Shown here in pieces: positions 11,935 through 63,891 of a stretch of 64,000 nt of DNA. The stretch comes from Coleophoma eucalyptorum (lineage: Eukaryota; Ascomycota; Leotiomycetes; Helotiales; Dermateaceae). The stretch's first letter is position 1. Each line of letters opens with the position of its first letter. Location: assembly GCA_026120035.1 (NCBI GenBank), contig JALRME010000017.1, forward strand, positions 620,001 through 684,000, read 5' to 3'. The notes beneath the pieces were generated by a model that was not told the origin of the DNA, did not search any database, and worked only from the letters and a program-made list of their open reading frames with translations. Both the position numbers and the translations under genes were made by a program.

Positions 11935-12332
11935 CCGTTCGTCGGGGGTTTACAGCTTCGATGCGGGCAAAGAGGTAAGTCGGTCTGGCAAGTGCAGCCT
12001 TGGAAACAAGGCACAGTGCTCAGCGAAATGCGCGCCGACGTTGTCGGCGGGAATGACTCGCGGATGCATTGCGGGATAATGCGGTTGATATAAACAGTGG
12101 CATCGGTGGTAAGCTATCTCCGAAAGATAAGGATAAGGATAAGGTAATGAGAACCGTCCCTATCGGCTAGAGTGGGGGAGGGGGAGGGGCATGGAATGCG
12201 TGTGCGTATACTTCACTGTCCAAAACGTGACTTCTATAACACTATAATAGCTTAATAGAATAGTTATGTATCCATGTACTATCATGATTTGGCCTTATTG
12301 CTAATTCTTAGACTCGTGTCTTGCAGCTTGAC
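11935..12332. other. Promoter region of the XlnR/AraR-type regulator
   Basis: 398 bp between the regulator start (11934) and the URC4 stop (12333), both minus strand. Contains a purine-rich stretch (agataaggataaggataagg at about 12126-12145) with GATA motifs, which are potential AreA-type nitrogen sites; this is only motif reading. Confidence 0.4.
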
Positions 12333-14917: not shown

Positions 14918-15568
14918 TCTCGTGTCTTTTTGGTAGTTTAAAATTTGCTTGTTATAGCGTTGATATCATGAGCGCATCAAATATTATATCATTTTGTTTT
15001 CTTGACATGAAGTCTATCAACATTACAAGCGTGATCAAGTCACTAGTGATACCCGACAGGCTGAAAACGGACGTTGAGATTTAGACTTGATTTAGATTTA
15101 TGAGTTGTTATTCAACAACATTAAGTCAAGATTATCAAATTGTGAATGGTATGGAAATGGTATGGAGGAATATCTGTACGGCTTCACCAGTTCACGCGTC
15201 CGACTACAGACAGCTCGCTTACCTTGCGCTCGCAATATTACCCGCAACACAGTATTGCGGGTAAATAGCGCGAGAGGGTAATTAGTTTTGGCAGGATGTC
15301 GAACATCCCCTCCTTCAGATGAAGCCACCTCTCCGTGTTATGTAGCTGGTACCTGCTCCACAAGTCATGATCAGCGGCAATAACCTCGAATGAAGCCACG
15401 GGTTTTAGAACGATGATGATAACCCGCAATAGAAGATGCGGTCACTGTGCTCGCTCTCTTGCTATATGAGAGCCAGCTTTCCCACCTAGTGAACTGTATC
15501 ACGGCAGTCTGTATATCCTTTCCATTGATATTATCCAGATCCGTACAAGTATCGTCAAGTCTTTAAAT
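14918..15568. other. URC6-URC1 intergenic region
   Basis: 651 bp between two plus-strand genes, holding the URC1 promoter. A short near-repeat with an inverted element occurs at about 15227-15262 (gcaatattacccgcaacaca / tattgcgggtaa). No gene seen. Confidence 0.4.
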
Positions 15569-34453: not shown

Positions 34454-35911
34454 ATGAGTACGCCCTACTACCATGAACAATCGAGATATTGATGGAAATT
34501 AAGGATTTGCAACACTCTAGCAACCAATTAAATACGGCATTCAACAATTTGAGAATGAATGAGGCGCATAAATTGGCAGTGCGGGAAACGAGAAGGACAC
34601 GCGGGATAATATATAGTAGTGAATGGAGTTCGACAATCGCCAGGAAAGATTTTAGGTACAATATCCACGCGACTGTCTAACGAGGTTGTAAGCAGAGAAG
34701 AGAGTGGGCTTGGGAGCTTCTAATATAGAAGTCTATGTGTCCGAAAATCTACCGCTGTACGGCGACCCCAGCATGCCACAGCAAGTCCTTGTGGCACTCC
34801 GTGCTCAGTGCCATGCCTGCTCTTGCCATTAAAGGTGGGTCAGTGAGGCTTACGATAAATTCTTCAGTCATCCCCCCAGAAAGAATCGCTCTATTCCTCA
34901 GAGAAAGCCGGCAAAGAACGTCCATGCTATTGTTGGACCTAGAAGTGCTATTCCTGGGTGTCCACGGCGAAATATCAGATGAATGGTGGAATGAGGAAGA
35001 AACGCTGCAACGACTTGTCCCGAGCATTCACACCTTATTCTTTTCTTCATATCTCGCCTGAGTTTCTCGCTCGTCTTCAAATATCATTTTGGGACAACTT
35101 GTATACCTTCAGTCAAGGATCTTTGAGGAGAGAGAAAGTCAAGTGACAAGCATTTGATTAGTCGCAACCTGGGAACGCCATTTCGTGATTCGAGAGTGGC
35201 ATTTCAGGCACGCCGGAAGCGGGATTCAATTTGAACTGTACAAATGTTCGAACAAATGCATCTTTCTGAGTATCCATGCTGTCTATTCGTTCGTAATATA
35301 GAGTCTGTTGAGTCTTAACTAGGATTATTCTGGAGACGATTCAACACGCAAATCTCATAAATCCGAGCCGTGACGGCCTTATAGTTATGGCAGGGCTGTT
35401 TAGGTCTATCTGCCACTCTAAGTATTTTTCTTCATAGACGGAACACTAAGTCGACCTAAGTCTTCTTGACTTAGCTTTGAATTGGGGTAATAATGCTTTG
35501 ATCGTGCCGTCAATCCATTAGTCTACTAACCGTAACAATATAGGGAACTTTACGAGAATGGAAATTACCTAATGCACCAACTTACAAATATACTAAAGAA
35601 AAAGTAGCTTTGTATGTTCTTGGCTTTAGGAGACTCAATTCATTGTCCTTACTCTATGGTGGGTTGGATCACATGATTATATGCAAAACAGGTACTGGCC
35701 AAGGTATCTCAAGATAATGAATCACGTAAGGTCATCAGCCTAATTCGCTCTTTCGAACCAATCATAAATCCTTTTCAGACAAGCGCCTTATCAACCCCGT
35801 AGCTTAATCTCACCTTGTATAAGAAACATTATCTTTCATTACAGTTCTTAGTGTGTTGGCTCCCTGCCATACTATTTCAATCCAATAACTTACGCTCACT
35901 ATTGCCTCAAA
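34454..35911. other. Divergent intergenic region, no gene recognised
   Basis: 1.46 kb between the monooxygenase and the HET gene. AT-rich from 35.2 kb on. A 108-codon open frame at 34735-35061 shows no motif and is overlapped by open frames on the other strand, so it is not called. Confidence 0.45.
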
Positions 35912-37564
35912 ATGCGCTTATTAAATATCAAAAGCATGAGGCTGGAAGAGTTTTTCGGCCACGATATTCCAAAATATGGCATCCTCTCGCACTGCTGGGG
36001 AAGGGAAGAGGTTACCTTCAACGATCTCAGTCAGCAATCATGGCGTGACAAATCTGGGGCAAGGAAGATAACCTATGCGGTGAATCAAGGTCTGTCTGAT
36101 GGTATTGAGTATGTCTGGGTGGACACCTGCTGCATCGACAAGAGTAGCAGCGCCGAGCTCTCTGAAGCGATCAATTCTATGTACAGTTGGTATCAGAACT
36201 CTGAGACTTGTTACGCGTTCATCGAGGACTTCACAATGGTCGACACCTTCCTCAGAGATCAAAAGGCCATCAAAAAATTCCGAAATAGCAGATGGTTTAC
36301 TAGAGGATGGACACTACAAGAGCTGATTGCCCCTAATCTGGTTCTGTTTCTCGACAAGAATTGGCATACAATTGGAACCAAGCATACACTGGCACCTATA
36401 ATCTCTAGCATCACCTCCATCCCAGAAGATGTCTTAATTGATTCTTCTAGGCGTAAGTTTGCATGTGTAGCTAAAAAGATGACGTGGGCTTCTGGTAGGA
36501 GAACAACTCGGACAGAAGATATTGCATATTCTCTCCTCGGTATATTTGACGTAAATATGCCATTAATCTATGGAGAGGGCAAAAAGGCATTCACTCGTCT
36601 CCAGGAGGAAATCTTGAAGGAAACAGATGACCAGTCCCTCTTCGCCTGGGGTCTTGATTCCCTGGTCGATTTTGATTTTGACCGATTTCCCTCACGCATG
36701 TTCTCATCCCCACGAGGAGTCCTCGCAGAAAGTCCAGATGATTTCTCAGGATCTGCGAATGTTGTTCCCATCCCGAGTAAGTCGAAGCAACCATACTCGA
36801 TGACCAATAAAGGCCTCCGTATTGAGCTTCTGCGGTGGTTTCATCCGTTGAACCCAAACCACTACATGATCGCCATGCTCGATTGCCGCTTTGAAAATGA
36901 TTCTTCGCGATCCCTTGGAATTGCTCTAAGGCAAACAGACGATCAGTCTGCGTTCATGAGCTACGGGGTAGGAAAAATATCAGCCACCCAAGGCGAGGGA
37001 GCCGAAATCGATACGCTTTACATTTGTAAGATTCCGCCTCAGGAAATACAAGCAGATAAAAGAACCTGCCTACTTCGTGCAGATTCAGTTCAGTTGCATG
37101 GATTCAGTATTGCCAAAGTTTCACCTGATAGTTTTCTTTGGAACCAGAAGAACGAGGTACTACATATGAGATTTCGCCGCATGAAAGACAGCGGGAAATG
37201 GGAGCGAAGCCTGGCCACTTTTACATTCTGCAATTATGAATTAAATCTTGGCTTTAGCTGCATGCTTCTGCTTCTAAGGAGATCCCGTCTCAATGACCAG
37301 ACGCCTGCACGTTTTATTTGTACTGTGAAAATCCTAGTCAAGGAACAGGGTGAGATATTACAACCCTGGCTTGAGAAACCGTACAAAGAAACTGAATCAA
37401 TGTCTGGCTTTTCTCCTTCTCAGACTGTGCAGGTTAATAATGACACGGTCAGCGGTACTCGACTAGATTTGCATGCGAAGGTAGCAGAGGAAAAATTAAT
37501 GAACCAACAGATGTTGGTGTTAGATATTAGTATGGAAGCTGTTGTTGAAGTCGACAGAAGGTAA
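35912..37564 (+). CDS. HET domain protein, HET-D/E-type N-terminus
   Basis: Single-exon 550-aa HET protein of the class related to Podospora HET-D/HET-E. It opens with MRLLNIKSMRLEEFFG and has KYGILSHCWGREEVTF (about 22-37), YVWVDTCCIDKSSSAELSEAINSMYSWYQNSETCYAFIED, and RNSRWFTRGWTLQELIAP. The following region RTEDIAYSLLGIFDVNMPLIYGEGKKAFTRLQEEI is the usual segment after the HET domain in these proteins. No NACHT or WD-repeat part follows, so this is the short form, likely an effector or an orphan HET gene. Clearly a different subfamily from the HET gene at 4.3 kb. Function in non-self recognition is inferred. Confidence 0.92.
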   Translation: MRLLNIKSMRLEEFFGHDIPKYGILSHCWGREEVTFNDLSQQSWRDKSGARKITYAVNQGLSDGIEYVWVDTCCIDKSSSAELSEAINSMYSWYQNSETCYAFIEDFTMVDTFLRDQKAIKKFRNSRWFTRGWTLQELIAPNLVLFLDKNWHTIGTKHTLAPIISSITSIPEDVLIDSSRRKFACVAKKMTWASGRRTTRTEDIAYSLLGIFDVNMPLIYGEGKKAFTRLQEEILKETDDQSLFAWGLDSLVDFDFDRFPSRMFSSPRGVLAESPDDFSGSANVVPIPSKSKQPYSMTNKGLRIELLRWFHPLNPNHYMIAMLDCRFENDSSRSLGIALRQTDDQSAFMSYGVGKISATQGEGAEIDTLYICKIPPQEIQADKRTCLLRADSVQLHGFSIAKVSPDSFLWNQKNEVLHMRFRRMKDSGKWERSLATFTFCNYELNLGFSCMLLLLRRSRLNDQTPARFICTVKILVKEQGEILQPWLEKPYKETESMSGFSPSQTVQVNNDTVSGTRLDLHAKVAEEKLMNQQMLVLDISMEAVVEVDRR

Positions 37565-48084: not shown

Positions 48085-50605
48085 ATGTCGAACTCAACAT
48101 CCGGTGTTGAGGTGCAGACGAAGAGTAGAGTTGTTAATGCGTGTGTTCTCCTTCCTCAGGTGCTTGCTTGCTTGAACTGATACGACCAAGCTGCCGAAAA
48201 TGTAGGCGGCGGAAAGTGAAATGTTCAGGAACAGCTCCATGTCTGAACTGTGTGAATCGAGGCCAAACTTGCATATTTGATGAAGCAGATAGACGGATTG
48301 TAATTTCAGAAAGGTTGCTCACCATAAAACGTTATCAGTAGCACGTACAATTCGAGCTAACGACCACCGAAAGTCATTTGCGCGACCTTGAGCGTCGTGC
48401 GACGGCACCTCACAACGGATCCCCTCGCTCAAACAATCCAGGCCCATCCCTGGGGGCTATGAAGCACTCTGAAGAGCAGCGGGATCAATTCTTTCGGGAA
48501 CCGAGAGTTTCCGGTACACCCGTCCAGAACCAAACTCATATGGAATCTCATGGTCAATCACCCCCGCCAATGAATAATCCCAGAGAAATGAATAGATTTA
48601 AAGGTATAGTCGCTGGTCTTTGGGCATACAAGAAACTTTTACTGATATATGAAAGTTCAAAATCGGCACGTGTCCACTTGGGCTTTCAGTGAGGAAGTGC
48701 GCCAGGTTCTGGAACCAAGGTCCGGTAAGCAGTCCGACGACTCGAGATCAGGAGATAAAGTCTCTTACATTATATATCCGCGGGATGAAAGTTTATTCGA
48801 TACTTCGACATTAAGTCTCCCACCTAAAGACTATGTCATCCACCTTGCCCAGATCGCAGATTTTCATCTTAATACAAACTACCTCCTTTTTGACCATTCA
48901 GCTTTCTTAGTGCAGCTCAGTAGTACCTCATTACAATCTTTGAAAAAAGCTTCCGAGGTATGGCACGTGAAATTACTAATGGTTATTGCACTGGGCAGGC
49001 TCTTCTTGGGGCGGGGAGCAACGAGCTTTGGACCTCCAGGTATCCGGGAGTTTCTTCAAGGAGCTAACGCCCTTCCATCCAATATCATAATAAATCAAGA
49101 TCCATTCATGGCAATTGAGACACTGTGTCTCTTGGCTAAGTATGCCGAAGCAGCAGATATGCACCATACCGCGTATCTCTATGTAAGTATTTCTCTATCG
49201 CATTCACTGTATGTATACTGACATTCACTAGACAGGACAAGCATCCAGGATAGCTCGCTCCTATGGCTTGGACAAAAAGCGAGATCTATCTAGAAACCCC
49301 GAGCCTGCCCGATATTCCTACATGCAAAATTTATGGTGGGCTATTTGTGTGCTCGATCAAAAGCATTCAGCAACTATCGGTGCTAACATCGACTATCCGG
49401 TTCACGAGCCAGATGACGGCTTATTTTCTCCCGGCGAAGATCTTGGCAGCACGTCAAGTTTTGCGTTACGATTCAACCTTCTTGTAGCCAATCAATTGAC
49501 TAGAGTCATGACGAGTATGCCAAGCAACTTCCTTTTTAAATTTATCTAACATCATAAGCAGCTCTCTCCCAAAACACAAGTGGAGCTGTGATGAGTTCTG
49601 CATTTATGGATGAAATCATGATTGAACTTGGCGCCATGCAACGCCTGGGGCAAGAGGCTCGTAATATGCAACAGCTCTGTTACGATCGGTCTCTTCAGAC
49701 GATCTCAAGGCCCGTAGCAACGCTGCACCTCCTCTACTATCACGTAAATACAAACACTCTGTTTAAGACAACACACTTTCTAAATGTTTGCAGTGCATTA
49801 TCATAGCTACTAAGCCTATCCTCTTGCATCTCATGAAGTTATCTCTTGACCAGGATGACCATAATGCTTCAATGAATGCGTCTTTTGAGCCTGCATTTGC
49901 AATTATGAGAACATGCGTCAATGCCGCATGCCGCAGCCTCAATATAATTTCCGCACTTCGTGAACAAAACCTCCTTGGTTGGTCTCCACACATTTGATCA
50001 TGATATAGATCTGACCACATATAGAGATATTTTCATTCTGCGACCTTGAGATAACTTTCCTAGCTGCATTATCGTTGGTGATTGCCAATGGCATTATCCC
50101 AAATATCACGGAATCTTCCTTTGTCAATGTGGCCAAGGCTGTTCTACAAGATATGAGCCGGGGAGGAAATATTCCTGCTACATTGCTCAAAAGTGAGATA
50201 GATGATGTAGAGAAACTAACTTCCAATCTACCTCCACCTCATACGAGGGCCGGTCACTCAGCCACGGTACAAAGACCTGCTACCATGGTTGAGGATGGAC
50301 GAGTTCTCAACAACGCCATCCTCGATATTATAGAAATTCAACCCGTGGGGAAACAGTCCCACTATGACCCCAGTTTCCGGCAACAAACGACCCCAGGGAC
50401 CTCCATGGGAAATCAACAGCCAAGACATGACATCCGTGAAGCGACGACGCTAACCCACAATCCGTCTTGGAGGCCATCCCTGCCACAGGCAAATAACACC
50501 GTGCCACTACATCCGAACAACATATATATCAACAGCTTCGATGCAGCTGAGAGTGGATTCACGTTCGATATGGAGGGCTTGCAGTGGCTAGATAGCGTAC
50601 AATAG
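48085..50605 (+). CDS. Zn2Cys6 transcription factor 1 of the phosphonate-like locus
   Basis: Nuclear regulator with zinc cluster and fungal_trans domain. Exons: 48085-48140, 48191-48313, 48374-48603, 48656-49182, 49232-49514, 49559-49743, 49794-49977, 50025-50605 (722 aa). The zinc cluster C20-x2-C-x6-C-x5-C-x2-C-x6-C46 is restored across intron 1 (VVNACRKCRRRKVKCSG). The fungal_trans part has LFDTSTLSLPPKDYVIHLAQIADFHLNTNYLLFD, GQASRIARSYGLDKKRDLS and LWWAICVLDQKHSATIGANIDYP, the usual helices with Trp-Trp. It ends in a Gln/Asn/Pro-rich tail with an acidic/aromatic end (FDMEGLQWLDSVQ), a likely activation region. Lies 520 bp upstream of the aldolase on the same strand. It is a candidate for binding the shared CTCGG-N9-CCGAG dyads. 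Target and ligand unknown. Confidence 0.88.
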
Positions 50606-51124
50606 ATCGCGCTTCAGCTTCGGTTCTTTAGAATCGCTTTTATTTGGGACAAAATAAATAGAGTTAAATGTGGCGGGGACACAAATCAGGCTTTGATAGA
50701 ATGGAATAGAATAATTTATATCTATCTTTTTTCATACTAAGTAGGCAAAACGACATTGCCTCTGATCTCATACGAAGTATAGTGACCAGTTTTCAGCTTT
50801 AAGTCCCCGAGCGGAGCCAAGACAGCTTGCGATTCTCGGGGAAAGCCTCCGAGCGGAGAGCGGAGATGATTGGCATTTGACGGAAATAATCGTCAGCGGG
50901 GCGGAGATATCTCGCCTTCTCGGGCAACAGGACGGCGCGACGCACGTTCAACACTCTACGGGCGCACACACGTCTAAGAAAACACCTTCTCTGCCATACG
51001 CCGCTCCTAGGTGCAATGCACAACTCTCTTACTAATTGGCGCTACCAAACCTCTATTGCTTGTGGGCAACCCAGACCTCTTCTGCTCATTCCGATCGCTC
51101 TTCGTTGAGCTCTTAATAAGCGGG
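50606..51124. other. Promoter region of the HpcH/HpaI aldolase
   Basis: 519 bp rich in CGG/CCG triplets between 50805 and 50950, unlike flanking AT-rich spacers. It holds one CTCGG-N9-CCGAG dyad (separate entry) and two CCGAGCGG (CCG-N2-CGG) elements at 50807-50814 and 50849-50856, 42 bp apart. CGG triplets are the half-sites read by Zn2Cys6 proteins. Confidence 0.6.
50835..50853. promoter_or_regulatory. CTCGG-N9-CCGAG dyad upstream of aldolase
   Basis: Exact inverted repeat, CTCGG at 50835-50839 and CCGAG at 50849-50853, 272 bp before the aldolase ATG. Inverted CGG triplets with a fixed gap are the standard form of a Zn2Cys6 dimer site. The same dyad recurs upstream of the aminotransferase. 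Confidence 0.6.
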
Positions 51125-52033
51125 ATGCTTCAAAATAACCTCCTCCACAATGTGGCTCAAAATCGAATATGCACTGTAAAATCAAAGAAACCCAAATCTC
51201 CATAGCACCAGAACTTCATTAATACGGTCAGGCACTCGGCGTCAAGCTTTGCGCTAGCAGCGAGATCATCCCTCTAGCTAAAGCTGCGGGATATGATTCC
51301 GTCTTCATCGATCTGGAGCACTCAGTATTCTCAATCAAAGACGCAAGCAGATTATGTTCAGCGTCGCTCCTTGCGAAAATCACCCCCTTCGTACGTGTGC
51401 CGTATCAATGCGGTAATGGATATGTGCAAAGAGTTCTTGATGGCGGCGCTATGGGGATTGTGTTCCCTCATATTAGCACCGTTGGTAATGTCTTCTCATG
51501 CTGCATTTCTACTGAGAGTAGACAACTGACCGCAAATAGAGGAAGCAAAAGCTGCAGTAGCATCAACCAAGTTTCCGCCGAAGGGGAAACGCTCCCTTAC
51601 AGCGGCATTACCACAGTTCGATTTCCAGAGGATTGGGGCAAGGGATGTGATCCAGCAGCTTGATGGTGTTGGATCAACCGTGTTCATCATGGTTGAGACC
51701 TGCGAGTGTCTCGCGAATATCGATGCAATTGCAGCAGTAGAAGGAGTCGATGTCTTACTACTCGGAGCCAACGACCTTTCGTTAGAGCTTGGCATTCTAG
51801 GGGATTGGGAGCACGAAATATTTCAAGCTGCTCTAGTAACAATTGCTAACGCCGCCAAGAAGGCGGGTAAGATCTTTGGCATTTCGGGATTATACACGCG
51901 GCCGGACATCTGTACGCGCGGGGTGAGGGAGTACGGTGCAAGATACATCCTGGGGCACCTTGATATAGGTTTGCTCGCAATGGCCATGCACAAGAACATG
52001 GAAAATCTGAGAGCTATGGAGGCTATGCCTTGA
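51125..52033 (+). CDS. HpcH/HpaI-family aldolase
   Basis: Class II metal-dependent pyruvate aldolase of the HpcH/HpaI family, cleaving or forming 4-hydroxy-2-oxoacids with pyruvate as one product. Exons 51125-51175, 51232-51484, 51540-52033 (265 aa, normal length). Active-site features: D44 and H47 in FIDLEHSVFS, R72 in FVRVPY, the metal-binding Glu in FIMVETCECLANIDAI and Asp in LLLGANDLSLELG, and the loop PKGKRSLTAALPQF. The first exon of 17 codons is the least certain part; the second exon begins at GVKLCASSEI, where the family normally starts. Located between the regulator and the PEP-mutase-family gene (convergent to the latter). The physiological substrate is unknown; with a phosphonopyruvate enzyme next door, a C-P-containing or pyruvate-derived oxoacid is a reasonable guess. 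Confidence 0.88.
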
Positions 52034-52806
52034 ATGCGTTGTGGAGATATCTCAGTGCTCCATTCACTATGGCACGCTGATGTCCCGCTTCGCAACGCTT
52101 AAGATGGGGGCTTGTAGCCCCAAATCATGTCATCTTGTGAATTTGAAGTAAGATATTTCATGGTTCTCATCTATCCAGGCTTATAGTTATCTATCAGCAG
52201 TCCAAGTTAGTCTAGTCTTAAGATCTCAAGCAGCGGTGCATTTTGCAAGCTAGGACCTACTGTTGCAGTACTACATCCATGTAGTTGGAACGCCCTGCAG
52301 AAAGGTATTTCCACGCTACATTACCGGTATCACAGTTGAGGGCTCGCCAGGATGTAAGGTACATACCTTGCCCTGAGGAATTAGGAACTGTTATCATCAG
52401 TTCCCACAGATCGTGTTAGCATCATGTGATGGTGGGGTCTGGACATCCTTGCCAGCACAAAAGAGTACCGACGGAGGACGAGCCATTATCTGACCTTTCC
52501 GGTGATGACCCACTTCACACCAAAGATGTTCGAAATTCTCAACTCCGTACTTCGCATGCTCGCTCAGCAATTGTTAACGGTGAGCGCAGATAATAAATGT
52601 CCGCGGACTTGCCCTGCCGAGATACCCGGGCGTTCTGCTTAATTCTTAATATGAACTAACAACTCTACAGCGGAGTCGGCGTCGGAAATCCTCACATTAC
52701 CGATGACTCTATTTGAAATAATTCAAGTAGCATTAAGGTGCAATGGAGAGGTAGCAAGTTCATTGAGTGAATGGGCTACTTATACACGAGTTTAAAAAGA
52801 GCCGTC
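52034..52806. other. Convergent intergenic region
   Basis: 773 bp between the 3' ends of the aldolase and the phosphonopyruvate hydrolase-like gene. No gene or repeat seen. Confidence 0.45.
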
Positions 52807-53736
52807 TTAGCGCAAGTAAGCCTTCTCAAGGTCGCGCATAGCAGCATCACCCTGCAGTTCAAATATATCAGACACCGGTGTTATGTGCCTCTCGACTGTG
52901 GCAATACCACCGTCTTCTATAATCCGAACGAATGTATGCCGCATGGCCGCAACCGCTGCTCGGATAGCATGATTTCCGCATATGATAAGGCCGACCTTAT
53001 CAAGAGCCGCCACTTCTGCAAAAGAGAGCTGCGGGTAGCTCGTCGGTACGATTACCAACGGAACATGCCCGGGCCACGCACGGCAAAACGACAGGATCTG
53101 GTCGGGCGTCTTCTGCTTACTATGGATCAATACTGCATCGGCCCCTGCTTCTGCATAAGCAATACCACGCCGTAACGCTTCTTCTTCTCCTAAGTCGGCA
53201 ATCAAAGCTTCCGTTCTTGCTATCACCAACATTGAGCTACTTGCTTTGGCAGCTGCAATTTTGCCTTGGAACTCAGAAACTGTAATCAGTGCCTGGCGCC
53301 CGCCCGGCCGCAAGCTGCTGTCTTTGGGAAAGGTTTTGTCCTCAATGACAACTGCAGCGGCACCTGCTGCCTCAAATTGTGGTACGGCATAAGCAACATT
53401 GACTGCATTGCCGAACCCCGTGTCCATATCAACGATCAGAGGTAGGCCGTGTACCTCGCCCATGGCGCGTGTCATCCCGAGAATTGTGCTCATCGGCAAA
53501 ATGCTAGCATCGGGGACAGCGTAAGAGGCGGATAGTTCAAAGCCGCTAACCCATACTGCATCGAAACGTGCTTCAGCAACGAGCTTTGCAGCCATTGGAT
53601 TGTGGGCGGCCATGGCAATGGCCGGTTTGTGCACATTCAATGCAGCGCGCAGCGCATCTATCTTAGATTTTGGAGTTGTTTGGTGGAGAGCAATGTTCGA
53701 TGGGGACGTAATCTGGACTTCAGATGAAGTTGCCAT
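52807..53736 (-). CDS. Phosphonopyruvate hydrolase-like protein (PEP mutase/isocitrate lyase superfamily)
   Basis: Intronless, 309 aa. It belongs to the PEP mutase branch of the isocitrate lyase superfamily: it has the EDKxxxxx signature (E132-D-K134-TFPKD-S140-S141) instead of the KKCGH active-site loop of isocitrate lyase, dimethylmalate lyase or oxaloacetate hydrolase. In PEP mutase the signature ends Asn-Ser; in phosphonopyruvate hydrolase the Asn is Thr; here it is Ser140, closer to the hydrolase. The rest of the protein (EFQGKIAAA, ADAVLIHSKQKTPDQIL, GNHAIRAAV) also follows the hydrolase pattern. Metal and substrate residues present: D103 and D105 (VDMDTGFG), R174 (IARTEAL), H205. Predicted reaction: phosphonopyruvate to pyruvate plus phosphate. 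A mutase (PEP to phosphonopyruvate, a synthesis step) is not excluded. Upstream lies a near-copy of the locus dyad. Confidence 0.87.
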   Translation of the reverse strand: MATSSEVQITSPSNIALHQTTPKSKIDALRAALNVHKPAIAMAAHNPMAAKLVAEARFDAVWVSGFELSASYAVPDASILPMSTILGMTRAMGEVHGLPLIVDMDTGFGNAVNVAYAVPQFEAAGAAAVVIEDKTFPKDSSLRPGGRQALITVSEFQGKIAAAKASSSMLVIARTEALIADLGEEEALRRGIAYAEAGADAVLIHSKQKTPDQILSFCRAWPGHVPLVIVPTSYPQLSFAEVAALDKVGLIICGNHAIRAAVAAMRHTFVRIIEDGGIATVERHITPVSDIFELQGDAAMRDLEKAYLR

Positions 53737-54694
53737 TTTCGGTAAATTGTGAAGACACTAAAAGCACGAAATAAGTCGTAATAGCTAGGACATGTGCGGC
53801 TTGAATTAGAGAGTAAGGTGAAAGGCAGCTATTGAAGAATGCGAGAAATACCTTACTTGAAAAACGAAAGGCATATTATATACTATTAGAGTAATGCGCG
53901 GAAAAGAAGCCATATGGAAGGAGTGCCCCCAGCTTGTGAGCAAGACGTTTTATGATGTCAGAACATAATTATGGTAGCACCTATAATTTGATGTCCTATG
54001 CTGACAGCCAAGCATTCGGGTCGGATGCCTACATACGCGTCGATTATTCGGATCTCGTCCCCGTGCTCGGAGCAGGTCTGCGAGAGATGCCTGCGAGGCG
54101 TGAGCATGCATGGATTCTGAGTGGATAATCGAGCGTGGCAAAGTCTACCTCATCTGCAGTCGCAATTGTGTGCTGCTTATTGATTCTCGTCGAGGATTTA
54201 ACTTTTTAAAAGTATAGATCTTGTTGAAAGAAAGGGGTCATGTGGTCACGCGACAGGCACCTACATGTAAATAGACTCCCAGGCAGACCTTCACCTTCTT
54301 TCTACAATGTCAATGTCAATACCCTCAATTCTCACCCTCTCTATTGATCCCTTATATCGTTGCTTTCGATAGATCTTCACTATTAATGTTAAATTAATTT
54401 TTTTTTTTCTGGGAAAGTGGGCGGAAACAAAAATGGAAATTTTAAGAAAAGGATATTAACAAAGCTTCGCAGTTCAGCAGTTTGTTATTAGCGCAGCATT
54501 TCGTGTACTGACCCAGCATCTAAGTTTCAAGAGCAAGATTTTAACCTGACTTATATAATTTGGCTGAACTACTGAATCTCACGAGAACAGCCCATCAATA
54601 AGTTTCAATCCGTTCCCGCTTGTAGGCCAAAAATTCTTTCACTTGTCGAAGCTGGTCACCCCACTTACACTCGACTACTCCAAGCCATCCCAGC
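53737..54694. other. Promoter of phosphonopyruvate hydrolase-like gene and 3' flank of aminotransferase
   Basis: 958 bp between two minus-strand genes. Holds a near-match of the CTCGG-N9-CCGAG dyad at 54066-54084 and a T-rich run near 54400. No gene seen. Confidence 0.5.
54066..54084. promoter_or_regulatory. CTCGG-N9-GCGAG (one mismatch) upstream of phosphonopyruvate hydrolase-like gene
   Basis: CTCGG at 54066-54070, nine-base spacer, then GCGAG at 54080-54084: nine of ten positions match the dyad seen at the aldolase and aminotransferase. It is 330 bp upstream of the ATG at 53736. Confidence 0.45.
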
Positions 54695-56363
54695 TTACAA
54701 GTTGTCTCGTACAACAATGTCCAATGCCTTGGCCACTGTGTTTATATTGCTCGGATTCAACCCCGCGATATTGATCCTTCCATTAGTGGGGAGATGTACA
54801 TGGAACTCGTGTACAAGACGTTCGACTTGTGATGGAGTCAAGTCAAGAAAGCTATATATTGTCAGTGGTGCTCCGACTCTATATAAGTGCGCCATACCTG
54901 AACAGTCCGTTTTCCTGGACAATATGCTCCCATTTTTTTGGTGTCTGTGCTTATCAGCTGTTGACAACTACAATGCAATACTGAGGATCACCTACCTTAT
55001 ACTCCAGATTCAATAGCTTGTATAGATTTTCTCTGTTGTTCCGGAGTCGTTCTCTCATCTGCGAGACTTCCCGGATCCTAGATGCTGGTTAAAGGGGTCT
55101 GGATATGTTGATGGAAACACTTACCAATCAGCCTCTAACGCATCCGAGGTCAGGATATTTGTTACAAGTCGAGCTCCATAATGAGGCGAGGAGGAGAATT
55201 CCCATCTGATTATACTTCTCAGCCGATCGACTACCAGAGGAGTGACCGCTGCATCGTTGTTCACAACATGCAGTGCGCCCACTCGTTCTCCGTATAGTCC
55301 CATGTTCTTGGAGAAGGACTGGCAAACCTAGAGATCTAAGTGTGAGCCTTCTCTGTTATTTCCGGAGCAAGTCGATTGCAAGTACATACAATTATTTCAT
55401 GACCCTCCTGTACGAATAGTCGGACACCGAATGCGTCTTCTTCAATGCCGTTGCCAAAGCCTTGATAAGCGATATCTATCGACTCTTAGCAATGCATCAA
55501 AAATCTGCGGCGCAGAACTCACCCAGGAAAGGAAACTGATTGTGGCGTTTCATCTCGTTGGCCACTTCCGCCCACTGCGCCTTGGATAGATCCATGCCAC
55601 ATGGATTATGGCAGCAACCTTGTAAAACAAAAATGCTGTTCTTTGGAGCAGTTCTGATATTCTCGAGTATTGTGTCGATATCCACCTTCTTCTCCTTCTT
55701 ATCGTAGTAATTGTAAGATCGCGTCTCAAAGCCGACGTGCTCGAATAGCGGCTGATAATTGCCCCAGGCTGGAGTACCAATATACACTAAGCCGCTCGAG
55801 TTTGGGAGAAATTGTTTTAAAAAGGCTGCGCCAACATGATTGGCACCAGTGCCGGAAATAGTCTGAACAGAAGCTATCTACGTTCTGGTCAGATTTGGAT
55901 TGCTGCCGGTGCTCGATTTACTCACCCGATTCTTAACAAGTGCTTCACATTCACCACCAAAGAGTAGTCGTTGAGCAGCCGTGAGAAATGCTGGAGATCC
56001 GGTGGTAAGTTCATACTGGTACGAATTAATTCGAGATAATTGGCACAAGTCATGGGCTGCATACATCATGCCCTGGGTTTTGATCGTTCAGAATGGACTT
56101 GGCCTAAGAGGACTATCAGCTATTCAATTCACAGTTGCTTGCAGTATCTAAGAACGAAAAGGTTAGACGACTTATAACACTTGTATCTTACATACTTTTG
56201 ACAACGCCGGGAGCTCATAGTAGGCACCGCTCTCATCTCGATAAACTCCTGCACCTAGGTCGATCTTCTCCGGGTTAGAGTCGTTTCGGAGACGCAACGT
56301 TAAATCAAACATTGGGTCTTTAGGACCGGGGCCAATATTAGCAAAGAGTCCTAGCGTAGCCAT
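54695..56363 (-). CDS. Class I aminotransferase (aspartate/aromatic type)
   Basis: PLP-dependent aspartate aminotransferase family enzyme, 408 aa, nine exons: 56363-56196, 56103-56065, 56015-55926, 55877-55523, 55475-55390, 55327-55125, 55077-54996, 54944-54898, 54851-54695. All junctions keep frame and restore family blocks. Motifs: GVYRDESGAYYELPALSKA, TISGTGANHVGA, LQGCCHNPCGMD (Asn/Pro pocket), FLDIAYQGFGNG (PLP-ring Asp-x-Ala-Tyr), SFSKNMGLYGERVG with PLP lysine K253, and NGRINIAGLN with the carboxylate-binding Arg. The N-terminus is short with no obvious mitochondrial presequence, so cytosolic. Next to a phosphonopyruvate hydrolase-like gene on the same strand, with two exact CTCGG-N9-CCGAG dyads upstream. 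That context suggests transamination of phosphonoalanine/phosphonopyruvate, as in bacterial phosphonoalanine use; general aspartate or aromatic amino-acid transamination remains possible. Confidence 0.92.
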
Positions 56364-56529: not shown

Positions 56530-56548
56530 CTCGGAGGGCTTACCCGAG
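56530..56548. promoter_or_regulatory. CTCGG-N9-CCGAG dyad, aminotransferase-proximal
   Basis: CTCGG at 56530-56534 and CCGAG at 56544-56548, 167 bp upstream of the aminotransferase ATG. Exact match, including spacing, to the aldolase dyad. Confidence 0.6.
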
Positions 56549-56663: not shown

Positions 56664-56682
56664 CTCGGCTACGGAATCCGAG
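56664..56682. promoter_or_regulatory. CTCGG-N9-CCGAG dyad, aminotransferase-distal
   Basis: CTCGG at 56664-56668 and CCGAG at 56678-56682, 301 bp upstream of the aminotransferase ATG; further single CCGAG boxes flank it (about 56654 and 56693). Confidence 0.6.
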
Positions 56683-56840: not shown

Positions 56841-58612
56841 TTATGCGAACGTGGGCAGACTCTCACACGAGCTGATAATGACATTTAACCTGTCCCTATA
56901 GTCGATCTCCTCTCCAGCGAGGTCGTCTTGTACCCATATGGACTGAATCACGGACTTGACGAAGCCCAGATTTCGCATAGGACTAATCTCTCTCGTCTTA
57001 TTGATGAGATCCAAGAGCATGATCCTCCGATCATCAGTTCGAGCCTCAAGCCCAAAAATCAACAGCGGAAACGGGCGCTCATAAAGATCCAGTCGAGAAA
57101 TTATAGGAAACGCCTTCTCAATGAACTGGTGGGCGTTACCTTTGTTCTTGAGTAATGGACCGCTCATTCGCGCAAGATACACCAGCTCGGCTAGCCGGTA
57201 CAACTCCATATCGACAACCTCAGCAGCTTTTGTGTTTGGTTGCACTCGGAGTGGTTCGACCGGTAGATCTGGAACTTGGATACTCATGAGGTTGCGCTGA
57301 AGCGATCTCACATAACTTTTGTAGTCGTCAGAGTTGAATTGAGGATCGGAGGGCTCCAACAGGGCTTCGCATGGTTGCATGAACATGGTAAGGATTTCAT
57401 GAGAGAGTGGTACCAAACCCGGCATCTAGTGCGGATTAGATCTTAAGACGATCCAGGGTATCTGGTATATTAGCGTACCTTCGTTTTCATGCATTTCGAA
57501 GCTCTCTTCTTCGCAAGTTTCTCTCCAATTTCCTTAATATAAGCGTCTTCAATTGCAACATGGCGGCGCCAGTGCCGCATGCTAAACTGGGATAGGGCGT
57601 CATGGTAATATACCCACCCCAGCAACGCCAAAATATCGTTGTCCTGCGCCGATCGTTCCATGAGATCGGTTGCATTTATGATATCTTTAATGCCACAAAT
57701 GTACCATATCCACTGTCCAGAGGTTTCTGTGGCCTGTTGGATCTGTACACTAGCTTCAGTGGGATTCAACCTGACATAAGGTGCAAGGTTTACCTCAAAG
57801 ATGCATAAGACCATGCTGGCAGCAATATGCTGGGTAGACTCCCTGGTACTCATGCTACAGTCTAAAGATGCGGATAGAATTTGAATAGCAGAAATTTTGT
57901 ATTGGGTAGCCTGTTCCTGAGGTCCAAAGCGATGCATCGATGAAAGAGCAAGGAGTGACCGCATCACCGCCATGGCCGGCGCCGTATTATCCGAGAGAGC
58001 CATGCGCAGTAGGATTTTACGGACCTCGAGGGCACAATGGCCATATGTTGCTAGAGAATACGAAGCGACATTTTCAACTATGCTGCAACTCAGTCGTGGG
58101 GCCGGGGATGATACATTAATTTACTTAACATACAGTAGTGAAGTAAATCCTTCCCTTTAGTGTCCAACTTGAGAGGGCTCCAGGGGATAGATCGAGGCAT
58201 GACTGGAGGAACCAGATGCCTCCTGTCTGATGAGCACATCAGCCTGCGAATTACCGGCTGATGTCAATAGCCTACCTTTACAGCCAAGACTGGACATGTA
58301 GTGATGCACCTCAATGTCCCAAGTTGATGCACTAATTACCCAAGCAGTAGAGACCATAGAAGCGTCCCTACCATCTTTAGAGGTTGGCCCGAGAATATTG
58401 CGTCTGTGGGCCTTCACTTTGGGCCAGGAGAGACGAAGGCTATAGCCCTGACATGTCCGTCCCGACGTGATACATCGTTGGCAACTTGGAACGGTGCGAT
58501 CACAACGGACCTTCCGGTCTGTTACCATAATTAGCTTGATGACTTACGAAGGCTTAACTAACTGCCTAAAAGTCATGAGCAGACCTCTACATGTGCCGCA
58601 ACCCTTTTGCAT
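56841..58612 (-). CDS. Zn2Cys6 transcription factor 2 (fungal_trans_2 type)
   Basis: Zinc-cluster regulator, exons 58612-58585, 58518-58276, 58226-58134, 58077-57479, 57425-56841 (515 aa). The zinc cluster begins almost at the N-terminus: MQKGCGTCRDRKVRCDRTVPSCQRC, C5-x2-C-x6-C-x6-C-x2-C-x6-C32, rebuilt across the first intron. Two small introns in the middle were chosen because they give one continuous frame, DRRHLVPPVMPRSIPWSPLKLDTKGKDLLHYFENVASYSL, which fits the start of a fungal_trans_2 domain. That domain continues with MAVMRSLLALSSMHRFG and WVYYHDALSQFSMRHW. The last exon ends with RDRLNVIISS. Divergent from the SDR gene across a repeat-bearing promoter. A second candidate regulator of this locus. 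Confidence 0.85.
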
Positions 58613-59472
58613 GATGTTGCAACAAGGAACAGCGATCCGGAAGGCTTATGGGAGTTGAATCGTCGCTAATGATCCATATACAGCCCCTGCATTCACCGTG
58701 AAAGAGGGTACACGTTTTGTGGCTGGGTGCCAGCAATCTCGAAAAAAGTTGCCTTGTTAATAGTCACAATGCCCTGGTGAAGAAGTACTGGAAGCTGACG
58801 AGATAGCCATTCTACTAATACCATAGTGTAGCAAAAAGATGCTGACATTGGCTTGCATAATCGTCTACCCGACTCCACTCCTGGACTCTCCGTTAGAAGC
58901 GGTCCGACAATTATGCCGCCGCAGCTTCAAGTCGGCCGAGTCAGATTCCGTCGGTGGGTTGGAGCAGGTGATGACAAATGAACGGGTGGTGGCCCATATC
59001 GCTCAAAATCGGCCACTTTTTGCGAGCCTAGGATGAACTGGGGTATGGCTAGGTTGTGCTCATATCACGAAGAATCGTCAACTATTTGCGAGCCTACGGC
59101 AACTGGCTCGTGATCATATCGCCAAGAAATCTCAACCTGCTGCGGAGTTTATGCTTGTCTAGGTCGTGATCACAATGACAAAAATCAGCAGCTTTTTGCG
59201 AGCCTGTAGTGAATTAGGTTGCTGCGACCATATCACGATAAAATGTCAACTTTCTGCGAGCCTACAGTATGGATTGAGCTGCTACTCTCTACTAGCGAGA
59301 ATGGTTATGAATCTGAACACAGTCACCAAGACCATAACGTATATACGGATATAAATGCATATATATATTGCCCTTTCATCCATGATGCTTTCAACATCTC
59401 ATCAGCTTCTTTCACATATATTTATCAGACAGCATACTCAACTTTCCCAGACAGACAAACACCGAGGCAAAA
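58613..59472. other. Divergent promoter of regulator 2 and SDR
   Basis: 860 bp carrying both promoters and the five-copy repeat at 58995-59265. No coding evidence. Confidence 0.55.
58995..59265. repeat. Five-copy promoter repeat, CATATC and TGCGAG boxes 26 bp apart
   Basis: CATATC boxes begin at 58995, 59061, 59115, 59171 (diverged, cacaat) and 59229. TGCGAG(CCTA) boxes begin at 59021, 59087, 59141 (diverged, tgcgga), 59197 and 59255. In all five units the distance between box starts is exactly 26 bp, while unit-to-unit distance varies from 54 to 66 bp. The array ends about 208 bp before the SDR ATG. A constant inner unit with variable linkers suggests a conserved binding element rather than a simple satellite. 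Confidence 0.8.
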
Positions 59473-60520: not shown

Positions 60521-61378
60521 GTGGATCATGCTCTGCCATAGTTATAAGCGTTCTGACACGAGTGTCGCCTAAGAACTGCAAGGGTCAAACAGGATTGGGG
60601 GTTATATGCTGGTAGTTTGTATCAACTATTACTTGAAGAGAAAATTCCTCACTCTGAAATGTAACAATTCTCCTCCAAATCATCGCCCTTGAGAAATGGC
60701 TGTAGCAACTCCTTAATGATCGGTAAGGATATCGACCATGAGTGAATCATAAGCAGGTTTACAACGGTTTTAGTAGAATCTTGTTTATTGGAGAATTAGA
60801 AATATACGCAATGTTGTGATTCCAACCGGGATTTATAGACATTGAGGAGGGTCACATAGCCCAAAACTCGAAAGTGGGGGTTATCAGGTGACCACCCGTC
60901 TGGGCTCTTGGTTATTTTAGATGATGGGATAGCACTGATGACATCCATATTCACAAAGAATCTAATTATCGTAGTACTGTAATATTATAATACCATAGCA
61001 CGAAAGCCCTGTTAAGAGCGATATCATCAGCTTGGAGTTGCTTCAAGATCCGTGCACACGAATACGGCATCGAATAGGGTCAGTGCAGGAAGTTGACTAA
61101 TATTGTAAGATCCACAAGCAACCTCATGTGTGAGTCAAGCCGTTCAGAACGAACATTTGTTTTTCTATAAGAGCGAAGAACAAAGAGGGTACAGGAAAAA
61201 GGCAATTCAGTATCGCCAATCACTTCCTTAAGGTTTCGTTAGTGGTCATTCACTTGCAGTCGCAGTAAATGTTTTATTCCCCGTGATATCGTTCTCGCTC
61301 GCTAACATCAATACAGCCTTCGCAGGTTTAACAATCGTCAACACCATACCATCAGATTTGATCAAGACACGAAACAAA
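60521..61378. other. Intergenic, promoter of PhzF-family gene
   Basis: 858 bp between two plus-strand genes. The frame of the next gene is open for 32 codons upstream of the chosen ATG (from 61283), so a longer N-terminus is possible. No repeat or dyad of the locus type seen. Confidence 0.45.
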
Positions 61379-62266
61379 ATGAAGCTCTCATATATCACCC
61401 TTGATGTGTTCACAACTACACGGTATGCTGGCAATCCACTTGCCATAGTCCAGGTCCCAGCCGAAAGCAAAGCTTCTCTCTCGCAGGTGCAAAAACTAGC
61501 CATTGCCAAAGAGTTCAACCTGTCGGAGATTATCTTCCTCCATCTCCCCAGCCCATCTGATTCTTTCGCTTCAGTCAGCATTGACATCTTCACCTCTGAT
61601 GCCGAAGTGCCCTTCGCAGGCCACCCTACCATCGGCGCTGCCTACTTCGTCCTGCAGATTCTGGCGCAGCCTACCACCACGCTCATCACCAAAGCCGGGC
61701 CCATCCCCATCTCCAAAAACCCAGCAACCAACTATATTGAAGCTGTAATCCCTCAAAAATTCCACATCCATCAGGCCACACTTCCATGTGAGCTCACCTC
61801 TAGCCCTTGCCCTATAGTGTCCATCGTGAACGGCATGAGTTTCGTCTTTGCCGTCTTGCCCGACCTACCAACTCTCGCGCGTGCAGATAAAAACTTGAAT
61901 AGCGATACTTATGACCCGTCGTTGTTGGATGAAGGATGGCAGAATGGCCTGGTAGCCACTATGTATCTAGCATCGCAAGGCATTGACGAGTTCGGCCGCC
62001 GAGCGTACCGGACACGCTGTTTTGGGAACAGAGAGGATCCCGGGACTGGCAGTGCTAGTAGTGCTTTGGGCTGTTGGTTGGCCTTGCAGGAGAGCAAGGA
62101 GCTAGGCGCTGGTCCTTTCACGTATGCGTTTGCACAGGGTGTGGAGATGGGGAAGTGCAATGATATCGGTGTGGAGGTTACGCGGAATGCTGCGGGAGAT
62201 GGCATTGAGAAGGTCTTGCTGAGCGGGCCTGCTACAAAGGTGATGGAGGGAACTCTTGAAGTTTGA
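61379..62266 (+). CDS. PhzF-family isomerase-like protein
   Basis: Intronless 295-aa member of the PhzF/diaminopimelate-epimerase-fold family. Bacterial PhzF isomerises dihydro-hydroxyanthranilate in phenazine synthesis; fungal members have unknown substrates. Features: YITLDVFTTTRYAGNPLAIV at the start, the catalytic Glu in FNLSE (E50), DAEVPFAGHPTIGAAYFVL in the first half and RCFGNREDPGTGSASSALGCWLA in the second, giving the two pseudo-symmetric domains. The ATG at 61379 matches the family N-terminus; an upstream in-frame ATG (61283) would add 32 residues unlike the family. Lies between the SDR and a LaeA-like methyltransferase. Confidence 0.92.
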   Translation: MKLSYITLDVFTTTRYAGNPLAIVQVPAESKASLSQVQKLAIAKEFNLSEIIFLHLPSPSDSFASVSIDIFTSDAEVPFAGHPTIGAAYFVLQILAQPTTTLITKAGPIPISKNPATNYIEAVIPQKFHIHQATLPCELTSSPCPIVSIVNGMSFVFAVLPDLPTLARADKNLNSDTYDPSLLDEGWQNGLVATMYLASQGIDEFGRRAYRTRCFGNREDPGTGSASSALGCWLALQESKELGAGPFTYAFAQGVEMGKCNDIGVEVTRNAAGDGIEKVLLSGPATKVMEGTLEV

Positions 62267-62563
62267 GTTGTTGAATTTTGGGTTTGATTTTTAGCGTCGG
62301 TTTTAAAGGTCATTGGCATTTGATGTTCAACTCATCAAGCTGGATGCTTCAAGCTCAGCTCGTTGCCCTAGCTGATAGGTCAAAAGTTATTGTATTTCAA
62401 GTGCTGTTTCTATCAGAAACTTCTTTCTGACTTGCTTTTTAAGCGCGACATCTATGCATAAATAGTTCTATGATTAACCTATAAATATTTCTCTGGTAAA
62501 GTAATAGACTTCTATAGAGCTAGCGGTTTTGTATCAAGAAAAGGGAAAGGCTTTCTATGGACT

Positions 62564-63891
62564 TTATTCTGGCTTACGGCCATAGACAACATAACTGTAT
62601 GAGTATCAGTAAAAATCTTGGCCAGCTTTATACATTCGGGTGTCTTACACATCAACGTAAGAATGTATGCGACGATCTTTAACATCCTTCACAACGTCGA
62701 CCAAAAATGCATCAATCTCTTTGACGGTCCAGCCAAAAGCTCTGGAAAGAACAGCGGTGCTCATCCCACTGATCCCATCAATCAAATCTTTCTGAAACCA
62801 TACCGAAAGAAACTTTTCTTTATCGCCCTTCGGCCACGGATTGGCCGGCCAGTAGAAATGCTTTTCGACAATGTCCACAAATCCCGCTTCTTTCATATAC
62901 TTAGCGTAGTTCTTGGAGTTCAATACCGATCGACCCAGCTTCGCCGCTCCCTGGGGGATAATTGTCGCCCACTTTTGTAGCGCTGTACCCTCCATGGTGT
63001 CATCTACAGAGATAATAGGCATCTTGGGATCTTGCAGCTCGAGGAACCCGCCGGGTGCAAGTGATTCAAAGGCGCTGGCTACGACGTGCGAGGGATCGCG
63101 GAAGCAGCTGAGGAGAGCTCTTCCATGGATATAGTCGAATTTCTGGCTATACTCCCATTGTTCTTCCGCATCCGTGACCTCGAAGCTACAATTTTGTGGG
63201 GTGCTGAGGGGAATCAACCGGTGGTCTGCTGATGGTTCTTGCAACCTTGTATTCTCACTTACTACTTTGGCTGGATTGGATTAAGGTCTGAACCGATTAT
63301 TTTTGCAGATGGATATTGTTGTGCTGGTAGATAGTGGGTCAGTGAGAGAACTTGGACGCGAAGGACTTCAGAAGGCGGGGTTAAAAATCTTATGAGAGAG
63401 CTATTCCTACGTACCAAATTCGATGGCCCAGATCCCGGTCCCCGTTCCAATGTCTAGGACATTGTGAAAATTGCCTGATAGAGGAGCGAAATGAAGTTTT
63501 CCCTCAAACGTCAACTGAAATAGACGATGTTGAAGATCTAAGAGATTTAGTTACAGATCGACTCAAGCATATCTCTTGGATTGGATACCCAATCTATCCT
63601 GCTCGGCATCATCATTTGGTAAAATATACTCTGGTTCAATATTAGCATCCCTTCCATTCAAACTTATCTCTGTGAGACAAACTTCCCGGATTAAAGGAAT
63701 GGTAGGTCCGGCCATTCTCTTCCACGTACTGGGAAATACTCTCTCGGAGCGACGCGGTTGCTTTCCTGTTGCACCAAAGTCAGCGGCGTTTAGAGTGCCT
63801 TTAAATACACTTACCCAATGTCCGAAGCAAATTTCAAACTTGTGTCTTCATCATATGGCTGGGGGTGCGCATTAGAATTGTTTCTAAACAT
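62564..63891 (-). CDS. LaeA-like SAM-dependent methyltransferase, second copy
   Basis: Class I methyltransferase of the LaeA-like family with seven exons: 63891-63815, 63765-63683, 63630-63589, 63537-63415, 63323-63263, 63203-62649, 62594-62564 (323 aa). Each junction restores a family block: YVEENGRTYHSFNPGKYILPNDDAEQDRLDLQHRLF, SAM motif I VLDIGTGTGIWAIEFA, IIGSDLNPIQPKYTPQNCSFEV, FDYIHGRALLSCF, LAPGGFLELQD, and the closing HSYVDVYVVYGRKPE, whose last ten residues come from a 31-bp exon. The ATG at 63891 is the first in frame. It is far more intron-rich than the copy at 24.1 kb, so the two are not recent duplicates. Target unknown; such genes often sit in or beside metabolite gene clusters. 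Confidence 0.9.

What the first reader, a model, noticed from the sequence alone, without database searches (positions are those of the whole stretch)
51125..56363. Candidate fungal phosphonoalanine/phosphonopyruvate gene set
A phosphonopyruvate hydrolase-like enzyme and a class I aminotransferase are neighbours on the same strand. This is the pair used in bacteria to turn phosphonoalanine into phosphonopyruvate and then pyruvate plus phosphate. An HpcH/HpaI aldolase, which also releases pyruvate, sits on the other side, and two Zn2Cys6 regulators bracket the three genes. I know of no described fungal pathway with this composition. Seen: gene order, motifs, shared promoter dyad. Known: family reactions. 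Inferred: that they act together on a C-P compound, in breakdown or synthesis.
Basis: partly seen in the sequence, partly recalled or inferred. Interest (0 to 1): 0.9.

Follow-up and report, generated by a model that had tools for sequence, protein, structure and literature searches.

The report
Fungal gene set with bacterial C-P hydrolase
A fungus carries a gene, probably acquired long ago from bacteria, that resembles an enzyme splitting carbon-phosphorus bonds, and shared DNA switches suggest it works together with a neighbouring aminotransferase and an aldolase, possibly to consume an unusual phosphorus-containing amino acid.

Summary
Between two Zn2Cys6 regulators lie three intact genes: HpcH/HpaI aldolase (51125-52033 +), an intronless phosphonopyruvate-hydrolase (PPH) homologue (52807-53733 -) and an aspartate-aminotransferase-family gene (54695-56363 -). 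The 'shared dyad' is real: CTCGG-N9-CCGAG is exact once upstream of the aldolase and twice upstream of the aminotransferase, with a one-mismatch copy upstream of PPH. The genome has 46 exact sites in 45.3 Mb; 0.002 were expected in these promoters. The genes probably form one regulon. The PPH protein passes NCBI's PPH cut-off (407.6 vs 374.4 bits), misses the PEP-mutase cut-off and lacks the mutase motif, so breakdown fits better than synthesis. Two limits emerged. Fungal and alphaproteobacterial homologues form a sister clade to the characterised PPH (Thr118 to Ser, Tyr234 to Cys), and none of its 36 bacterial loci fetched has a palB-like gene, so phosphonopyruvate as substrate is likely but unproven. 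The recurrent fungal pair is aminotransferase plus aldolase (8 species); in 120 listed PPH homologues only Coleophoma's shares a contig length with an aldolase. Best reading: a bacterial PPH-type gene recruited into a fungal aminotransferase-aldolase regulon, probably for phosphonoalanine or phosphonopyruvate use.

The parts
48190..50605 (+). left Zn2Cys6 transcription factor (C6 motif at 48192; 5' end and introns not modelled)
50835..50853 (.). exact dyad CTCGG-N9-CCGAG in the aldolase promoter
51125..52033 (+). HpcH/HpaI-type aldolase, 3 exons 51125-51175, 51232-51484, 51540-52033
52807..53733 (-). phosphonopyruvate-hydrolase-type enzyme, intronless, 308 aa
54066..54084 (.). one-mismatch dyad CTCGG-N9-GCGAG upstream of the PPH gene
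54695..56363 (-). aspartate-aminotransferase-family gene, 9 exons, 419 aa, in a fungal clade whose members are linked to HpcH aldolases elsewhere
56530..56548 (.). exact dyad in the aminotransferase promoter
56664..56682 (.). second exact dyad in the aminotransferase promoter
56841..58612 (-). right Zn2Cys6 transcription factor (C6 motif, Fungal_trans_2 domain)

Best explanation
It is a small inducible fungal catabolic regulon. A flanking Zn2Cys6 factor binds CTCGG-N9-CCGAG sites and switches on the aldolase and aminotransferase genes, and probably PPH through its weaker site. The aminotransferase turns an aspartate-like amino acid, most likely phosphonoalanine, into the 2-oxo acid. The PPH-type enzyme hydrolyses phosphonopyruvate to pyruvate and phosphate. 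The aldolase cleaves (or makes) a 4-hydroxy-2-oxo acid, again giving pyruvate. The PPH gene came from Alphaproteobacteria-like bacteria and was added to an older fungal aminotransferase-aldolase partnership. Shown here: gene structures, family membership, dyads, clade position, conserved catalytic residues. Inferred: binding by a flanking factor, substrates, direction of flow, one pathway for all three.
For: PPH: best PDB match is Variovorax PPH 2dua, 377.9 bits, against 250.1 for the best PEP mutase; TIGR02321 407.6 over cut-off 374.4, TIGR02320 256.1 under 319.55. The PEPM/PPH catalytic-site positions W, S, G, D, D, D, E, K, K, R, H (set recalled) are all kept in the window protein. The mutase motif EDKXXXXXNS, said to distinguish PEP mutase in PMC6697681 (passages), reads EDKTFPKDSS here. 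Own-genome paralogues L003-L005 carry EDQ..KRCGH instead. Co-regulation: dyads. Fungal group: a 45-tip clade holding the window and the 11 named fungal proteins, support 0.975, with 0 of 80 bacterial loci; gene intronless. The two Arg of AAT that bind a dicarboxylate (roles recalled) are kept in the alignment to 3hlm, which suits phosphonoalanine as an aspartate analogue. Bacterial pal loci pair a class I aminotransferase with PPH (PMC10574752 passages).
Against: Thr118, which I recall as the position that differs between PPH and PEP mutase, is Ser in 12 of 12 fungal and 35 of 36 clade-B bacterial loci, and Tyr234 is Cys in 48 of 48. One of the 11 named fungal proteins has Asn at the D87-equivalent metal-site position (P0057). 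0 of 36 clade-B loci has a PalB-like gene, though 32 of 43 clade-A loci lack one too. Clade-B neighbours are varied (prpD/prpC, a KCE-family enzyme, enoyl-CoA hydratase, amidohydrolase) and none that I annotated is a clear phosphonate gene. The bacterial pal pathway as described has no aldolase. PPH is not seen linked to the other two genes in most fungi. The dyad upstream of PPH has one mismatch; about 0.06 such sites would be expected there at the window's own rate.
Confidence: 0.48

Rival explanations
1. The regulon is real, but clade B is a new activity of the PEP mutase/isocitrate lyase superfamily that cleaves or hydrolyses a carbon compound (an oxaloacetate- or alkyl-isocitrate-like acid), working with the aminotransferase and aldolase on a hydroxylated dicarboxylic amino acid. 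No C-P bond is involved.
For: Clade B is separate from the clade of the characterised PPH (support 0.986) with T118S and Y234C. In 13 of its 36 bacterial loci a prpD-like or methylcitrate-synthase-like gene lies near (12 and 11 loci; one of each annotated). The recurrent fungal partnership is aminotransferase plus aldolase.
Against: PPH equivalog cut-off passed; EDK..PK loop and P-C-type catalytic residues kept, no Cys-Gly-His loop; canonical prpB over cut-off is present in 16 of 18 genomes searched, including the 8 searched that have the prp-like context, so the clade-B gene is not needed as methylisocitrate lyase there; Ser for Thr keeps the hydroxyl.
Confidence: 0.3
2. The three genes are ordinary neighbours with separate jobs; PPH acts alone with any housekeeping aspartate aminotransferase.
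For: PPH and the others seem to be on different contigs in Fusarium nematophilum and Exophiala viscosa (the listing gives only the longest contig of a cluster). Of 120 PPH rows, one shares a contig length with an aminotransferase row, a 1,366-base metagenome contig too short for both genes, so a coincidence. The closest relatives of the window's aldolase show no aminotransferase link.
Against: Three of the genome's 46 exact dyads lie in the promoters of two of these genes, with a near-copy at the third; aldolase-aminotransferase linkage recurs in 8 other fungi; Coleophoma's best PPH and best aldolase share a contig length.
Confidence: 0.16
3. A biosynthetic set: a PEP mutase makes phosphonopyruvate, which is aminated to phosphonoalanine or elongated by the aldolase into a phosphonate natural product.
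For: An aldolase plus aminotransferase could build a 4-hydroxy amino acid; fungi are known to make phosphonates such as fosfonochlorin (recalled).
Against: Mutase motif absent and mutase cut-off missed; no phosphonopyruvate decarboxylase over cut-off in the genome by a six-frame search; of the five other own-genome matches, three carry EDQ..KRCGH, one EDQTWPKRKHL, and for L006 I found no motif in the matched frame.
Confidence: 0.03

Closest known systems
Phosphonopyruvate hydrolase PalA of Variovorax sp. Pal2 (PDB 2dua, 2hjp, 2hrw)
   Same: Same NCBIfam equivalog, full-length alignment, same catalytic set except residue 118
   Different: Sister clade; Ser for Thr118, Cys for Tyr234; fungal gene
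Bacterial pal operon (palA-palB-palC/D/E-palR; PMC10574752, passages)
   Same: A class I aminotransferase next to a PPH, own regulators
   Different: Aminotransferase is of the eukaryotic aspartate-aminotransferase type (22% local identity to the PalB-like protein of L047); Zn2Cys6 instead of LysR; no transporter gene among the three enzyme genes between the regulators; extra aldolase
Fungal HpcH/HpaI aldolase-aminotransferase neighbours (Fusarium, Trichoderma, Colletotrichum, Aaosphaeria)
   Same: Same two families linked, aminotransferase in the same clade
   Different: No PPH row shares a contig with them; aldolase of another subfamily (48-52% identity for seven of them)
Sclerotinia sclerotiorum Sscle03g026100, 'putative phosphonopyruvate hydrolase' (PMC7749757, one passage read)
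   Same: Fungal PPH annotation already in print
   Different: Discussed there for alternative splicing; the passage reports no cluster and no activity
Foreign phosphonate genes in bdelloid rotifers (PMC3499245, one passage read)
   Same: Bacterial-type phosphonate enzymes gained by a eukaryote
   Different: Other enzymes: 2-aminoethylphosphonate transaminase, phosphonopyruvate decarboxylase, phosphonoacetaldehyde hydrolase

Membership tests
Phosphonopyruvate hydrolase | Score over NCBIfam TIGR02321 cut-off | tested here: met
   407.6 vs 374.4 bits
Phosphonopyruvate hydrolase | Catalytic residues shared with 2dua | tested here: met
   The positions checked agree except T118, which is Ser; list of positions recalled
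Phosphonopyruvate hydrolase | Groups with the characterised enzyme in a tree | tested here: inconclusive
   Sister clade, support 0.986; tree rooted on PEP mutases; C-C lyases were not in the tree
Phosphonopyruvate hydrolase | Hydrolyses phosphonopyruvate | not testable with these tools
   needs an enzyme assay
PEP mutase | EDKXXXXXNS motif and TIGR02320 cut-off | tested here: not met
   EDKTFPKDSS; 256.1 vs 319.55 bits
pal-type phosphonoalanine catabolic operon | PPH next to a class I aminotransferase | tested here: met
   genes adjacent, same strand
pal-type phosphonoalanine catabolic operon | Aminotransferase orthologous to PalB | tested here: not met
   22% local identity, E 0.003 to the PalB-like L047 protein; best PDB matches are eukaryotic AATs
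pal-type phosphonoalanine catabolic operon | Induced by phosphonoalanine or phosphonopyruvate | not testable with these tools
   needs expression data
HpcH/HpaI aldolase | PF03328 over gathering score | tested here: met
   54.4 and 33.6 bits for two exon pieces vs 25
Aspartate aminotransferase family | Full-length match to solved AATs with catalytic Lys | tested here: met
   306.8 bits to 3hlm over residues 9-413; Lys in SFSKN (role recalled)

The most novel reading that the evidence does not exclude
A eukaryotic regulon for breaking a carbon-phosphorus bond at phosphonopyruvate: an alphaproteobacterial-type PPH clade with Ser at position 118 was captured once by ascomycete fungi and, in this lineage, placed under a Zn2Cys6 dyad shared with a fungal aminotransferase and aldolase, giving a fungal counterpart of the bacterial pal operon.
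Probability: 0.42. Interest if true: 0.72.

Novelty: new variant of a known kind. Interest (0 to 1): 0.6.

Why it matters
Fungal phosphonate use is reported physiologically (Geomyces pannorum on 2-aminoethylphosphonate, PMC3905195, passages read), and at least one fungal C-P-cleaving oxygenase fusion is in print (a title seen in the reference list of PMC10574752; the paper is not held). A fungal PPH regulon would add a hydrolytic route to soil phosphorus cycling, show how a bacterial enzyme gene becomes wired to a fungal switch, and give one promoter element by which the pathway can be tested. If the enzyme is not a PPH, the annotation carried by clade B in fungi and Alphaproteobacteria is wrong.

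Tried and rejected
Shared words of 8 or more bases in all three promoters: none; inverted repeats with arms of 10 or more did not show the dyad, whose arms are 5 bases. A second place with two dyads 3.1 kb apart (C5:394045 and 397177) holds, by eye, unrelated ORFs: a folate-enzyme-like one, an MFS-like transporter, a PHD-finger protein. The other HpcH copy on contig C63 has no AAT or PPH match on that contig. Methylisocitrate lyase as the function of clade B was considered because of prpD/prpC neighbours and weakened by canonical prpB in the same genomes. First bacterial ORF calling by length gave antisense ORFs in GC-rich loci; it was replaced by a codon-position score, which still missed the PPH ORF in 18 of 80 loci. 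Phosphonopyruvate decarboxylase, phosphonatase and phosphonoacetate hydrolase: weak matches only, nothing over cut-off in the own genome (six-frame search, introns lower scores). No structure was predicted: I judged it would not separate PPH from near relatives.

Paper searches (number holding the terms): phosphonopyruvate hydrolase + fungi (6), phosphonopyruvate + fungal (23), hydrolase + mutase + active site (6), Thr118 + phosphonopyruvate (0), EDKXXXXXNS (1), phosphonate + fungi + phosphonoalanine (9), hydrolase + methylcitrate (1), HpcH + aminotransferase + gene cluster + fungal (1), hydrolase + horizontal gene transfer (5). Passages were read in six papers; the rest were seen as listings. 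Apart from the Sclerotinia annotation, nothing I saw describes a fungal PPH gene or cluster; subscription journals are mostly not held.
Full report
WHAT IS THERE. The window lies in a 45.26 Mb genome held in 101 contigs, at C10:620001-684000. Genes with introns and fungal Pfam domains show it is a fungus; the nearest named relatives of PPH and aldolase, from Coleophoma cylindrospora, suggest Leotiomycetes (inference, taxonomy recalled). Between a left Zn2Cys6 gene (+, ending 50605) and a right one (-, 58612-56841) lie three enzyme genes: an HpcH/HpaI aldolase (51125-52033 +, three exons), a PPH homologue (53733-52807 -, no intron) and an aspartate-aminotransferase-family gene (56363-54695 -, nine exons). 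Pfam and NCBIfam agree with these families on the exon pieces given, and whole-protein PDB searches agree. The aminotransferase model is uncertain near residues 57-80.

SHARED SWITCH. CTCGG-N9-CCGAG, which contains the CGG...CCG half-sites typical of Zn2Cys6 factors (recalled), is exact at 50835 (aldolase promoter), 56530 and 56664 (aminotransferase promoter); 54066 (PPH promoter) has one mismatch. No shuffle of 100 gave an exact match and none gave 7 one-mismatch matches (mean 1.10, largest 4). The genome holds 46 exact sites, against 32 for the pattern read backwards, so the motif is not much enriched genome-wide. Three of the 46 fall in these promoters, where 0.002 are expected (Poisson P 1.3e-9). 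Spacing 9 is the only one found in this orientation in the cluster. The PPH site alone is weak evidence: four non-exact matches in 64 kb mean about 0.06 in that 961-base promoter. That a flanking factor binds the dyad is inference.

WHICH ENZYME. The protein is closest in the PDB to Variovorax PPH (377.9 bits); next come PEP mutases 5unc (250.1), 1m1b (187.0) and 1s2u (183.4); all other superfamily members score 93.6 or less. It passes the PPH equivalog and misses the PEP mutase one. Of 120 listed homologues (3725 found, candidates capped at 8000), 11 are named fungal proteins. In a tree of 204 tips (the window, these 120, 80 bacterial loci, three PDB chains; rooted on the two PEP mutases) two clades appear. 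Clade A (44 tips, support 0.964): Variovorax 2dua and 43 loci, by record titles mostly Beta- and Gammaproteobacteria. Clade B (157 tips, support 0.986): the window, the 11 named fungi, 36 loci (by titles mostly Alphaproteobacteria) and 109 other listed proteins. One locus, L088, branches outside both. The 44 loci outside clade B have Thr at 118 and Tyr at 234, 44 of 44. In clade B residue 118 is Ser in 12 of 12 fungi, 35 of 36 loci and 106 of 109 others, and 234 is Cys in all of these 157. Other catalytic positions are unchanged in the window protein; one named fungal protein (P0057) has Asn at a metal-site Asp. That residue 118 is the PPH/PEP-mutase difference is recalled; a search for it in the held papers gave nothing. 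The C-C lyases were not in the tree; three own-genome paralogues differ from the window in the loop motif (EDQ..KRCGH).

ORIGIN. The window and all 11 named fungal proteins fall in one 45-tip clade (support 0.975) with 33 proteins whose organisms I could not learn, and with 0 of 80 bacterial genome loci. With the gene intronless and the nearest identified relatives outside that clade bacterial, one bacteria-to-fungus transfer is the simplest reading; bacterial members among the 33 would change it. The support of the next deeper node is 0.771, so the exact bacterial sister is not fixed. Coleophoma is the window's sister tip (support 0.936).

BACTERIAL CONTEXT. A PalB-like class I aminotransferase is found in 11 of 80 loci, all in clade A (11 of 43), 0 of 36 in clade B; some loci are cut short by contig ends. 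Loci L047, L055, L062, L064, L069 and L071 show the order LysR, binding protein, ABC ATPase, permease, aminotransferase, PPH (names given by eye except the aminotransferase of L047, which is under its family's cut-off), matching the described pal cluster (PMC10574752, passages). Clade-B loci show other things: a prpD-like gene in 12 and a methylcitrate-synthase-like gene in 11 of 36 (13 loci in all, Acetobacteraceae and relatives), the one prpD annotated scoring under its cut-off (846 vs 950) and the one synthase over it; a KCE-family gene over its cut-off and Opp-like permeases under theirs in Roseococcus; and enoyl-CoA hydratase, amidohydrolase, short-chain dehydrogenase, an NMT1/SsuA-like binding protein with a sub-threshold Phosphonate-bd match, gyrB and others. 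Neighbours were annotated for only part of the loci. The window's aminotransferase and aldolase have no match at E 1e-4 in the 80 loci. Canonical prpB over cut-off occurs in 16 of 18 genomes searched, including the 8 searched with prp-like context.

FUNGAL CONTEXT. Sharing a contig is weak evidence for megabase contigs and strong for the 61,554-base one. All 8 of these aminotransferases and the window's lie in one clade of 98 of 122 tips (support 0.988) without the five other own-genome aminotransferases (rooted on one of those). The window aldolase is of another subfamily (86% to Coleophoma, 48-52% to seven of the linked ones). PPH and aldolase of Coleophoma share the contig length 2,197,234; no other of 120 PPH rows (three without a contig) matches an aldolase row, and the single PPH-aminotransferase match, 1,366 bases, is too short for both genes. 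Fusarium nematophilum and Exophiala viscosa seem to have the genes on different contigs; F. albosuccineum is inconclusive because its contigs are short.

READING. I take the co-regulation as well supported (about 0.85), PPH-type chemistry as likely (about 0.6), and phosphonoalanine as the pathway's entry as the best single guess (about 0.5). The aldolase may serve a second substrate, or 4-hydroxy-2-oxo acids related to the same compound. Synthesis by PEP mutase is very unlikely. Nothing I saw in the searches named under Tried and rejected shows activity for any fungal member.

Noticed in passing
58980-59263: Five imperfect direct repeats of 50 bases (60-72% alike, start-to-start 54-66) lie upstream of a short-chain dehydrogenase gene that begins near 59474.
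   Followed up: partly
9171-16813: DUF1688 and GTP cyclohydrolase II genes with a fungal transcription-factor gene nearby; this resembles the fungal URC pyrimidine-breakdown cluster (recalled).
   Followed up: no
61232-63280: PhzF-like gene (+) and a methyltransferase-domain ORF (-) beside the short-chain dehydrogenase.
   Followed up: no
4313-6142 and 35852-37564: Two HET-domain (heterokaryon incompatibility) ORFs.
   Followed up: no
L030-L051 (Acetobacteraceae loci): Genes of the PPH family sit near prpD-like and methylcitrate-synthase-like genes although a canonical prpB exists elsewhere in the genomes searched; their true substrate is open.
   Followed up: partly
L105 (C63:6500-15500): A second HpcH/HpaI aldolase, 56-67% identical to the window's over two exons, without aminotransferase or PPH match on that contig.
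   Followed up: partly
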